The notes under the pieces: model-generated
What the model was told of the DNA's origin: nothing
What the model saw: only the letters and a program-made list of their open reading frames with translations
Database searches by the model: none
Translations under genes and position numbers: made by a program
Origin: Acidobacteriota bacterium
GTDB lineage: Bacteria; Acidobacteriota; Vicinamibacteria; Vicinamibacterales; UBA823
DNA: 64,000 nt
Assembly: GCA_002730525.1 (NCBI GenBank)
Contig: PCAK01000040.1
Span: 62,001-126,000 of the forward strand
Direction: 5' to 3'
Shown here: one piece after another, positions 48,802-51,987 of the stretch
Layout of the letters: the number at the start of each line of letters is the position of its first letter
How positions within the stretch are numbered: position 1 is the first letter of the stretch

Positions 48802-49932
48802 ATGATCAACGTCGCCGCTATCCGGATGCAGCAGTTCGGCGTGCACTTCTACCAAGCGTCGCTGACGGCCAACGACATCGACCGGCTGGTCCGGTTCGAG
48901 GTGCTCAGCTACGGCGAGCAGGGCCAGGCTCCGGCTCGGGGTGGGAAGCGCCGCCAGTCGAAGGTCAACTGGGACTTCCTCGAGCGGCGGATCGGCTCGA
49001 GCGAAAAGGCCTACCAGCGCCAGATCATCAAGCGGAAGATCGACGAACTGGTCCAGTACTACGAACAGTGCCGCCAGGCGCGAGATCTCCCGTCGATTCC
49101 GGGGGCGGTCATCATCTCGTCGGACGAGCCGCTGCGGTTCGAGACGTCCCAGGCCGGCTCCAACCTCGGCGTGCTGAAGGTGCCCGAGCGCGAGGGCGTC
49201 CTGCGCGCCATCGACGGCCAGCATCGGCTGCTGGCGCTGCACGCCGACATCGAACGATTCGGCGAGGAACTGTTCAGCGTGCCCGCCGTCGTTTTCGACC
49301 GACTGCCAGAAGACCACGTCGTCCAGATGTTCGTGACGATCAACGCGAAGCACACGCGGCTGAACGCCTCGCATCTGGTGTCGTTGTCGGGTCGGCAGCT
49401 CTACCGTGACGACAATCTGGCCGCCGCGCACGACATCGTGCGTGTCCTGGCCGAGCGAAGCGGTTCGGCGCTCAGCGGCGAGATCAAGCTGCTGGGGGTG
49501 GGGCAGGGTCGCGTGGCCCAAGCGCCGCTGGCCCAGGAGTTGAAGAAGCTTTTTGCGACCGAGTCGTTCGGCGGCCAGCGGAAGTCCGCGGCGTTTCGCA
49601 ACGAGGCCAAGAAATTCTACGTGAACTACTTCCGTCAGGTGGCTCAGGTGTTCGGCGCCGCGTGGAACGGTCGGAAGTACAGCATCAAGAAGGCAACGGC
49701 GCTCAGGGCCTTCATCCGGGTCTCACCCTCGGTCATCAGCCGCCTCGACCAGGAGCACGCCGATCGGAGTGATTTCCGGGCGATCGGGCGAGTCATTTCC
49801 CCGTGGGGCCGCCGGATCGGCGATCTGCGCTTCGAGACCGAGGGGGCCTGGAAGCGAAAGAACACGACGGTGGAGTCCCTGGCGACCGAATTGCGCCTAG
49901 CGCTGCAGTACCCGGAAGGCGCCTCGACCTAG
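48802..49932 (+). CDS. Stand-alone DGQHR-domain protein (DndB-related fold)
   Basis: 376 aa, cytosolic. The signature AIDGQHRLLAL is at residues 136-146 (DGQHR at 138-142), followed by VQMFVTINAKHTRLNASHL, as in DGQHR/DndB-like proteins. DndB regulates DNA phosphorothioation, and other DGQHR proteins lie in defence islands or are of unknown role. The DGQHR motif is intact. No dndACDE, restriction or other defence genes are nearby, so its role is open. A strong promoter lies upstream. The following pilin-like gene starts 87 bp after its stop. Confidence 0.85.
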   Translation: MINVAAIRMQQFGVHFYQASLTANDIDRLVRFEVLSYGEQGQAPARGGKRRQSKVNWDFLERRIGSSEKAYQRQIIKRKIDELVQYYEQCRQARDLPSIPGAVIISSDEPLRFETSQAGSNLGVLKVPEREGVLRAIDGQHRLLALHADIERFGEELFSVPAVVFDRLPEDHVVQMFVTINAKHTRLNASHLVSLSGRQLYRDDNLAAAHDIVRVLAERSGSALSGEIKLLGVGQGRVAQAPLAQELKKLFATESFGGQRKSAAFRNEAKKFYVNYFRQVAQVFGAAWNGRKYSIKKATALRAFIRVSPSVISRLDQEHADRSDFRAIGRVISPWGRRIGDLRFETEGAWKRKNTTVESLATELRLALQYPEGAST

Positions 49933-50019: not shown

Positions 50020-50436
50020 GTGATGACGGGTCTTCGAGATCGCGGCCGGGGGGAGTTGGGGTTCACCCTCATCGAGCTGCTCATCGTCGTGGCGGTGATC
50101 GGGCTCCTGGCGGCGATTGCAATCCCCGTTTTCGCGCGAGCGCGGTCGGCCGCCGGTGATACCGTCGCCAAGGCTGATCTGAAGAGCGCCATGACGGCGA
50201 TCGAGCAGTACGTCAACACTTTCGGAGCATTTCCGACATCAGAAGCGGATCTGGCCGATGTGGACTTCAACCTCTCGGGTGGAGTCAGCTTTTCCACGTT
50301 CGACGTCAAGACCAAGAACGGTGTCCTCAGTGCGCACATGCACATCGAACACGTCGGGTCGGCCAATGGCTGGCATGCACAGTATCCAACCGAAGGAATG
50401 GCGATTACGTTTCGGAAAGGCCAACTGGGCGAATAG
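50020..50436 (+). CDS. Type IV pilin / type II secretion pseudopilin-like protein
   Basis: 138 aa; GTG at 50020 is followed immediately by an ATG at 50023. A short leader ends in LG before FTLIELLIVVAVIGLLAAIA, the prepilin peptidase site with Glu5, so the class III signal is complete. The C-terminal domain has about 95 residues and no Cys pair. It resembles GspG/PilA-type subunits with a short globular domain (TAIEQYVNTFGAFPT). No assembly genes are nearby, so it is an orphan pilin whose machinery must be elsewhere. Confidence 0.87.
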   Translation: MMTGLRDRGRGELGFTLIELLIVVAVIGLLAAIAIPVFARARSAAGDTVAKADLKSAMTAIEQYVNTFGAFPTSEADLADVDFNLSGGVSFSTFDVKTKNGVLSAHMHIEHVGSANGWHAQYPTEGMAITFRKGQLGE

Positions 50437-50868: not shown

Positions 50869-51987
50869 CTACGCCATCGCCCCGAAGAACTCGGCGTGGC
50901 CGTTCATGACCCGGTCCATTTCGGTCGCGCTCGGTTCCAGGGACCAGTCGTCGGCCTGCTGCGTGCCCCCGAGCACGATCCCGTCGCGACGGGAGAGCAT
51001 GTAGAGGCCGCCGCCGATGACCATGTAGTCGACCTCGGGCTGCGGCAACAGGACGGTGAGCTGGCCCTTGACCGGATGCAGTTCCTCGTCGCCGAAGAGC
51101 GGCTTGGCGCCGAGTCCGGTGCAGTTCACGAGCGCAGGTTCGTCCAGGGCGAGCAGTTCGTCGAGGTCGGCGAACTCTCGCACGACCACCCGCGCGCCGG
51201 CGAGTCTGACGTCGCGCATCAGCGCATTCAGGTAGACCGGCGGCTCGAAGCGCATCGTCCACCGCCGGCGCACGTAGGGCGCCGGGAACGGATGCTCGGA
51301 CGGTTCGAGTTGGGCCGTCTCCGGATAGAGGTCGGTGATGAGCCGGCCGAGGCCGCGCTGCTGGCCCTCGGGGTTCGGCGGGTTCTGCGAGAACGAGTAG
51401 TACGGCACCCACCGGACGCCGTACTCGTCGCCGAGGTAGTCCTGAAAATGCCGGTGCGACAGCCGCGTCGCCCGGTGCCACACTTCTTCGAACGCCGGCG
51501 TCGTATGCTCCGCCTCGGAGGCGCCGGTCGGTCCGAACCACGCCGCCGACATGTTGGAGGTGGCCCGTGGTGGCAGATCCCTCGCGTAGATCGTCACGTC
51601 GCGGCCCCGCTGCTGCAGGAGACGGGCAGTCGACAGGCCGATGACGCCCGCGCCGATCACGCCGAACCGCGTCGCGCCGGTCTCGAGTGCCAGATCGGCA
51701 GCGAGATGGGCCGTTCCCCAGGAGAGCGACATGCCGCTCCCGCCGTGGCCATAGTTGTGGATGATCGTCTTCTCGCCGTGGGACTCAGTGCGCAGCACGA
51801 AGCCCGAGGGGCGGGAGGGCCGCAGGCCGACAGTCGTCCGGATGATCCGGTCCCGCGCCACCCGCACCCGAGGGAGTCGGACCGGCGCCGGCGCGCTCGG
51901 GCGGGCGCAGTGGGCAGCCAGGCTGCCGCCGAAGCCGCCCAGGAGGGTTGTTTTCAGCCAGGTCCGCCGGTTGGTCCGTCCACCCAT
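50869..51987 (-). CDS. Tat-exported, circularly permuted D-amino-acid-oxidase-like flavoprotein
   Basis: 372 aa. Tat-type signal (NRRTWLKTTLLGGFGG). Residues 53-60 VGLRPSRP and 77-85 HNYGHGGSG, then SWGTA, are the motifs that normally end D-amino-acid oxidases (substrate Arg and FAD-binding C-terminus). Here they come before the Rossmann FAD motif VIGAGVIGLSTARLL (about 110-124). The chain then ends at GIVLGGTQQADDWSLEPS and a helix, the part that normally precedes GLRP. The order is thus circularly permuted with all parts kept. An oxidase or dehydrogenase of amino acids or amines in the periplasm is likely; the substrate is unknown. It is divergent from the adhesin-like gene. Confidence 0.85.
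   Translation of the reverse strand: MGGRTNRRTWLKTTLLGGFGGSLAAHCARPSAPAPVRLPRVRVARDRIIRTTVGLRPSRPSGFVLRTESHGEKTIIHNYGHGGSGMSLSWGTAHLAADLALETGATRFGVIGAGVIGLSTARLLQQRGRDVTIYARDLPPRATSNMSAAWFGPTGASEAEHTTPAFEEVWHRATRLSHRHFQDYLGDEYGVRWVPYYSFSQNPPNPEGQQRGLGRLITDLYPETAQLEPSEHPFPAPYVRRRWTMRFEPPVYLNALMRDVRLAGARVVVREFADLDELLALDEPALVNCTGLGAKPLFGDEELHPVKGQLTVLLPQPEVDYMVIGGGLYMLSRRDGIVLGGTQQADDWSLEPSATEMDRVMNGHAEFFGAMA

What the first reader, a model, noticed from the sequence alone, without database searches (positions are those of the whole stretch)
50869..51987. Natural circular permutation of a D-amino-acid-oxidase-like flavoenzyme, with a Tat signal
The FAD/substrate motifs VGLRPSRP (53-60) and HNYGHGGSG (77-85), which end ordinary DAO-family proteins, come before the Rossmann GAGVIG motif. 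The chain ends at GIVLGGTQQADDW, which normally precedes GLRP. All segments are present but rotated by about 50 residues. Combined with a twin-arginine signal, this suggests an exported oxidase with altered topology.
Basis: partly seen in the sequence, partly recalled or inferred. Interest (0 to 1): 0.75.

Follow-up and report, generated by a model that had tools for sequence, protein, structure and literature searches.

The report
Circularly permuted, exported D-amino-acid-oxidase-like flavoenzyme
This gene encodes a D-amino-acid-oxidase-like enzyme whose last part has moved to the front of the chain behind an export signal, and well over a hundred related bacterial genes share the same rotated order, so it is a real, apparently undescribed natural variant of a textbook enzyme.

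Summary
The 372-aa protein (50869-51987, minus strand) matches D-amino-acid and D-aspartate oxidases (DAO) in two out-of-order pieces: residues 105-360 match the first three quarters of the enzyme and residues 49-102 match its C-terminal quarter. Rotating the sequence in silico joins them into one collinear match with higher scores. The permutation is shared by three paralogues in the same genome and by 127 distinct relatives in Acidobacteriota, Gemmatimonadota, Eremiobacterota, Pseudomonadota and Actinomycetota. None has a second copy of the moved segment. Canonical-order DAOs occur in the same phylum. AlphaFold2 gives a confident model (pLDDT 92). Its residues 104-370 superpose on DAO residues 1-269 (Z about 23), and the N-terminal segment has the strands and helix of the missing C-terminus. 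The carboxylate-binding arginine (Arg283 in human DAO, here Arg56), HNYGHGG and the FAD motif are kept. About 94% of relatives carry Tat-like signals, mostly with a lipobox, against none of 14 canonical homologues. Most likely it is a periplasmic, often lipid-anchored flavoenzyme that deaminates D- (or related alpha-) amino acids. Substrate and electron acceptor are inferred, not shown. No held paper describes a permuted DAO. New variant of a known kind.

The parts
50869..51987 (-). Complete gene of the circularly permuted DAO-family flavoprotein, 372 aa
   Evidence: ORF; high GC at codon position 3, 0.89; PF01266 DAO E 5.7e-37; 95% identical protein in UBA2161
51904..51987 (-). Tat-type signal, residues 1-28: NRRTWLKTTLLGGFGGSLAAHC, with an atypical lipobox-like end
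   Evidence: Sequence; family-wide pattern RRxxLK...GC; low pLDDT as expected for a signal; TatC in the genome
51682..51855 (-). Relocated C-terminal segment of DAO, residues 45-102 (GLRP strand, hairpin, HNYGHGG, helix)
   Evidence: Matches DAO C-terminus, residues 280-336 of 6rkf; strands 48-58, 64-70, 73-79 and helix 82-101 at pLDDT 94-99
51817..51828 (-). GLRP motif, residues 54-57, with Arg56 equivalent to human DAO Arg283 (substrate carboxylate)
   Evidence: Invariant in 44 of 44 exported permuted, 3 of 3 non-exported permuted and 14 of 14 canonical bacterial rows
51739..51759 (-). HNYGHGG motif, residues 77-83, equivalent to human DAO His307-Gly313
   Evidence: Aligned and nearly invariant
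51667..51684 (-). New junction (residues about 102-107) joining the former C-terminal helix to the first Rossmann strand
   Evidence: Rotation optimum at residues 94-110; helix ends at 101 and strand begins at 107; most relatives have a gap of 4-9 residues here
51637..51654 (-). FAD-binding GxGxxG motif (GAGVIG, residues 112-117)
   Evidence: Invariant glycines; PF13450 and PF01266 match starts here
50872..51681 (-). FAD- and substrate-binding body, residues 103-372, matching DAO residues 1-269
   Evidence: VIA-align Z 22.9, rmsd 2.0 over 249 residues to pig DAO 1kif; Z 23.6 to 6rkf
51001..51003 (-). Tyr329, equivalent to human DAO Tyr228 (substrate carboxylate)
   Evidence: Aligned column: Tyr in 23 of 44 exported permuted rows, His in 9
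50944..50982 (-). GIVLGGTQQADDW (336-348), followed by the helix 354-369 that ends the chain
   Evidence: Aligned to DAO GGxxQxxxW; canonical chains continue from here to GLRP; helix

Best explanation
The gene encodes a naturally circularly permuted member of the DAO family of FAD enzymes. The canonical C-terminal piece (about 58 residues: the GLRP strand, a hairpin, HNYGHGG and the last helix) sits at the N-terminus behind a Tat signal, and a short junction of about five residues fuses it to the Rossmann strand that begins ordinary DAOs. The new chain ends lie in the loop after the helix that follows GGTQQADDW. The folded enzyme should be an ordinary DAO: FAD held by GAGVIG, substrate carboxylate held by Arg56 (with Tyr329), the HNYGHGG loop at the flavin. 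It is folded with FAD in the cytoplasm, exported by Tat and, in most relatives, lipid-anchored, where it oxidatively deaminates D- (or related alpha-) amino acids outside the cytoplasm. Shown by computation: gene order, homology, fold, motif conservation, breadth of the family. Inferred: export, FAD loading, substrate class, activity, and whether O2 or the respiratory chain takes the electrons. The usual origin route (tandem duplication, in-frame fusion, trimming of both ends) is assumed; no intermediate was found.
For: Crossed matches to DAO structures become single collinear matches on rotation, e.g. human DAO 58.3 bits in two pieces to 67.8 in one, and 6rkf 108.1 to 114.2. Rotation scan with controls. 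160 permuted ORFs (127 distinct) against 14 canonical ones found by half-profiles, with no ORF carrying two copies of the moved segment. Three permuted paralogues in the same genome. Model pLDDT 92, pTM 0.87, with Foldseek E 1.9e-16 to 6rkf and the first 33 matches all D-amino-acid or D-aspartate oxidases. VIA-align maps model 104-370 to DAO 1-269. Catalytic arginine, FAD and HNYGHGG residues conserved. Tat signals in 116 of 124 against 6.9 expected, Tat plus lipobox in 99 of 124. TatC in the genome. Paralogue neighbourhoods hold M19 dipeptidase, amidase, gamma-glutamyltranspeptidase and a beta-lactamase-family hydrolase, compatible with amino acids released outside the cytoplasm.
Against: No biochemical data. 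The structural aligners work in sequence order, so the three-dimensional placement of residues 45-102 on the DAO C-terminus was not superposed directly; it rests on sequence homology plus the confident single-domain model. The substrate pocket differs from DAO: the Tyr224 lid is missing, residues around human 51-55 differ, and Tyr228 is not universal (His in a relative 75% identical). The window gene stands alone between divergent and convergent genes, with no operon partner that points to D-amino acids. The Tat call is by motif and shuffle control, not a trained predictor.
Confidence: 0.85

Rival explanations
1. It is permuted and exported but works as a respiratory dehydrogenase: electrons go to a membrane quinone or a periplasmic c-type cytochrome rather than to O2, so no hydrogen peroxide is made.
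For: In Kozakia the permuted gene is directly followed by a cytochrome c gene and lies near a second, DadA-like FAD enzyme and serine hydrolases. Haem motifs (CxxCH) occur in 5 of 73 co-directional neighbours. PQQ dehydrogenase genes recur near 11 loci. Peroxide formation at the cell surface would be costly.
Against: The closest solved relatives are oxidases. The gene association is present in a minority, and none is adjacent to the window gene. Acceptor use cannot be read from sequence in this family.
Confidence: 0.35
2. The permuted enzymes have left D-amino acids and act on another alpha-amino or imino acid, for example a glycine or sarcosine derivative or a peptide-derived amine.
For: The substrate pocket has diverged. 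The GcvT-like aminomethyltransferase family is the commonest co-directional neighbour (5 of 73). The signal-less permuted branch sits beside a thiamine-diphosphate enzyme.
Against: The carboxylate-binding Arg is invariant and the nearest solved relatives by sequence and by fold are D-amino-acid or D-aspartate oxidases rather than glycine or sarcosine oxidase (Z 23 against 17-18).
Confidence: 0.3
3. The order is an artefact of assembly, annotation or a local gene fusion, or the front segment belongs to a separate domain and a second GLRP copy follows.
For: A single metagenome-derived gene could be chimeric.
Against: 127 distinct relatives in several phyla share the order, including plasmids and isolates such as Bauldia litoralis, Rhizobium, Bradyrhizobium and Kozakia. 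No second copy exists.
Confidence: 0.01
4. The permutation arose more than once: the exported branch and the signal-less Rhizobium/Nonomuraea branch are independent rotations at the same place.
For: The signal-less branch is no closer in identity (30%) to the window protein than canonical DAOs are (30-32%). With a distant outgroup the grouping falls to 73% bootstrap, though 99% by likelihood test, and that outgroup was poor.
Against: One change of order is enough on the unrooted trees, and the permuted rows form one side of a branch with 100/100 support, also with gappy columns removed. The cut point is the same.
Confidence: 0.15

Closest known systems
D-aspartate oxidase 6rkf and human/porcine D-amino-acid oxidase (EC 1.4.3.1 / 1.4.3.3)
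   Same: Same fold and FAD motif, same carboxylate Arg and HNYGHG(G/S) loop; 27-31% identity over about 305 columns after rotation
   Different: Ordinary order with the C-terminal segment last, no Tat signal, Tyr224 lid absent in the permuted protein; substrate pocket differs
Canonical bacterial DAO homologues in Acidobacteriota, Gemmatimonadota and Actinomycetota (L128-L134, L151-L153, L170, L175, L176)
   Same: 30-32% identical after rotation for the three measured, with the same conserved motifs
   Different: Unpermuted, no Tat-like signal in any of 14
Glycine oxidase ThiO, sarcosine oxidase, DadA-type D-amino-acid dehydrogenase (Pfam PF01266 superfamily)
   Same: Share the FAD fold (Z 17-18 for glycine and sarcosine oxidases); DadA is a membrane-associated dehydrogenase (own knowledge)
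   Different: More distant, canonical order; NCBIfam ThiO and DadA models far under their cut-offs
Other natural circular permutations (saposin-like swaposins, N6-adenine DNA methyltransferases, cited in PMC2213659)
   Same: Same kind of rearrangement, explained there by tandem duplication, fusion and new start and stop
   Different: Different folds; no DAO-family case found in the held literature

Membership tests
DAO superfamily (Pfam PF01266) | Profile score above the curated cut-off | tested here: met
   128.5 bits against 27.9; 55 of 55 relatives match
DAO superfamily (Pfam PF01266) | DAO fold: Rossmann FAD domain plus substrate domain | tested here: met
   Model pLDDT 92; Z 22.9-23.6 to DAO and DASPO over 249-253 residues
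D-amino-acid oxidase, canonical (EC 1.4.3.3) | N-terminal Rossmann strand and C-terminal GLRP...HNYGHGG, in that order | tested here: not met
   Order is reversed
D-amino-acid oxidase, canonical (EC 1.4.3.3) | Arg283 and Tyr228 that bind the substrate carboxylate | tested here: met
   Arg56 and Tyr329 align with them; the Arg is invariant in the family, the Tyr is not
D-amino-acid oxidase, canonical (EC 1.4.3.3) | Oxidation of D-amino acids with O2, giving H2O2 | not testable with these tools
   Needs purified protein
Glycine oxidase ThiO (TIGR02352) | Equivalog score above cut-off | tested here: not met
   64.4 bits against 250.8
D-amino acid dehydrogenase DadA type (NF001933) | Subfamily score above cut-off | tested here: not met
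   31.2 bits against 383
Tat-exported protein | Twin-arginine motif, hydrophobic stretch, Tat machinery in the genome | tested here: met
   RRTWLK at the N-terminus, 116 of 124 relatives against 6.9 expected, TatC present
Tat lipoprotein | Lipobox [LVI][ASTVI][GAS]C at the end of the signal | tested here: inconclusive
   Window protein has LAAHC, a poor match; 99 of 124 relatives have Tat plus lipobox-like

The most novel reading that the evidence does not exclude
A widespread, undescribed family of circularly permuted DAO-like enzymes works at the outside of the inner membrane as lipid-anchored amino-acid dehydrogenases that feed electrons from amino acids into the respiratory chain through cytochrome c or quinone, with the permutation freeing the FAD-domain end of the chain and placing the membrane tether on a surface loop near the substrate side.
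Probability: 0.2. Interest if true: 0.75.

Novelty: new variant of a known kind. Interest (0 to 1): 0.56.

Why it matters
DAO is a textbook flavoenzyme with much structural work and biotechnological use, and I found no natural circular permutant of it in the held literature. The family shows that the FAD fold tolerates rotation of its C-terminal quarter, gives a large natural data set (canonical and permuted forms in the same phyla) for studying how permutations arise, and suggests surface-located amino-acid oxidation in uncultured Acidobacteriota and Gemmatimonadota. It also warns annotators: sequence-order searches call these proteins partial DAO hits, or 'FAD-dependent oxidoreductase', and hide the rotation.

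Tried and rejected
Chimera or assembly artefact: rejected by paralogues and 127 distinct relatives. Second GLRP copy or duplication intermediate: none found. A Mesorhizobium copy that looked split at the junction is only frameshifted inside GAGVMG. A Gemmatimonadota copy in two pieces (G547) lies at contig ends. Phage origin: no phage or PHROG match. Gene-neighbourhood function prediction: diffuse, no operon. Rooting with distant outgroups: uninformative; one of the two outgroup rows was the wrong reading frame, so the root should be ignored. Ten literature searches with various wordings found no description of a permuted DAO. VIA-align and Foldseek rows cover model residues 102-371 only, because both align in chain order.

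Full report
What is there. The gene at 50869-51987 on the minus strand encodes 372 residues. It begins with a twin-arginine signal (MGGRTNRRTWLKTTLLGGFGGSLAAHC), then carries GLRPSRP (54-60) and HNYGHGG (77-83), and only afterwards the FAD motif GAGVIG (112-117). It ends 24 residues after GIVLGGTQQADDW (336-348). The gene stands alone: a divergent gene upstream and convergent genes downstream, none linked to amino acids.

Is the rotation real? Against solved structures the protein matches D-aspartate oxidase 6rkf in two crossed pieces: residues 105-360 to 12-263, and residues 49-102 to 280-336. When the sequence is rotated in silico, the same search gives one collinear match with a better score for 6rkf (108 to 114 bits) and human DAO (58 in two pieces to 68 in one). 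A scan over every rotation against six canonical bacterial DAOs gains 93-102 points with the optimum start at residues 94-110; canonical-canonical and permuted-permuted controls gain 0 to 3 points. The moved segment alone scores 118-123 against canonical C-termini, where the maximum of 500 shuffles is 45-48.

How widespread is it? The same genome holds three more copies, 43-47% identical over the alignment, all permuted. One scan of species genomes found 207 relatives. Profiles of the two halves sorted all fetched ORFs into 160 permuted (127 distinct) and 14 canonical, and none has the moved segment twice. In drawn samples the permuted form occurs in 15 of 199 Acidobacteriota genomes, where canonical forms occur in about 7; in about 42 of 200 Gemmatimonadota against 2 canonical; in 5 of 58 Eremiobacterota; in 13 of 289 Alphaproteobacteria; and among 185 Gammaproteobacteria only in the seed genome itself. 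In Gemmatimonadota the permuted form is therefore the usual one among relatives found with this query.

Structure. AlphaFold2 on a 55-sequence alignment gives pLDDT 92 and pTM 0.87. Residues 48-101 form three strands and a helix at pLDDT 94-99, and the helix (82-101) runs into the first Rossmann strand (107-111) through five residues. Foldseek's first 33 matches are all D-amino-acid or D-aspartate oxidases. VIA-align maps model 104-370 onto pig DAO 1-269 (Z 22.9, rmsd 2.0 over 249 residues) and 6rkf (Z 23.6); glycine and sarcosine oxidases follow at Z 17-18. These aligners work in chain order, so the relocated segment itself was not superposed; that remains the one missing structural check.

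Active site. Aligned with human DAO, Arg283 is Arg56 and is invariant in every permuted and canonical row. His307 to Gly313 is HNYGHGG at 77-83, and the GxGxxG glycines are invariant. Tyr228 corresponds to Tyr329, kept in about half of the exported rows and replaced by His, Ser or others elsewhere. The Tyr224 lid is absent. The enzyme should therefore bind the carboxylate of an alpha-amino acid at the flavin, but side-chain preference cannot be read off. The residue roles assigned to human DAO are established knowledge, not tested here.

Export. A Tat-like signal with a hydrophobic stretch is present in 116 of 124 permuted relatives against 6.9 expected from shuffles, and a lipobox-like motif accompanies it in 99 (1.3 expected); 0 of 14 canonical homologues have one (with N-termini listed). 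TatC is encoded in the genome. The Tat route fits a cofactor enzyme that must fold with FAD before export (established knowledge). The window protein's own lipobox is poor (LAAHC), so it may be soluble while most relatives are anchored.

Evolution. After rotation, permuted and canonical rows separate on one branch with 100/100 support, also with gappy columns removed. One change of order is enough, but because the tree is unrooted and the attempt at rooting was poor, a second independent rotation in the signal-less branch is not excluded. That branch (Rhizobium, Bradyrhizobium, Nonomuraea) has no export signal and sits next to a thiamine-diphosphate enzyme gene. So export is not a necessary consequence of permutation.

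Function. The best reading is an exported, DAO-like deaminase of D- or related alpha-amino acids. Around the paralogues lie an M19 dipeptidase, an amidase, a gamma-glutamyltranspeptidase and a beta-lactamase-family hydrolase, and across the family peptidases and GcvT-like proteins recur, which suits amino-acid release outside the cytoplasm but is diffuse. Whether electrons go to O2 or to the respiratory chain is open; a cytochrome c gene directly follows the Kozakia copy.

Novelty. Ten literature searches and one paper read (PMC2213659) gave no report of a natural circular permutant of this family. Subscription papers and preprints are not held, so absence is not proof. Databases label such proteins simply FAD-dependent oxidoreductase. 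I file it as a new variant of a known kind.

Noticed in passing
window 48802-49932 (+): Stand-alone DndB-like (PF14072, E 1.7e-13) gene next to a pilin-like gene (50020-50436); conserved beside the permuted gene in three close relatives (L006-L008), with no dnd operon seen among the genes called at 40-60 kb.
   Followed up: partly
L105:2476-6702, L150:3363-7690, L149:4866-7685: Permuted DAO-like gene without an export signal directly before a thiamine-diphosphate enzyme gene in Rhizobium, Bradyrhizobium and Nonomuraea (with an FAD-binding oxidoreductase gene before it in the two rhizobia): a small conserved cassette of unknown pathway.
   Followed up: partly
L154:3735-4798: Mesorhizobium onobrychidis copy of the permuted gene is frameshifted exactly inside the FAD motif GAGVMG, so it is annotated as two FAD-dependent oxidoreductases; probably broken or a sequencing error.
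   Followed up: partly
L148:217-6514: Kozakia baliensis plasmid cluster: serine hydrolases, a canonical DadA-like enzyme, the permuted Tat enzyme and a cytochrome c gene in one direction, with a TonB receptor gene beyond on the other strand; looks like a D-amino-acid or peptide uptake and oxidation cluster.
   Followed up: partly
L019:5183-6397, L033:5440-6705 and similar: GcvT-like aminomethyltransferase gene directly downstream of the permuted gene in several Gemmatimonadota, hinting at a glycine or methylated-glycine substrate there.
   Followed up: no
L171 (G739, ORF 1042-2601): Very divergent canonical-order DAO-like protein in an Eremiobacterota genome, on the longest end branch of the tree.
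   Followed up: no
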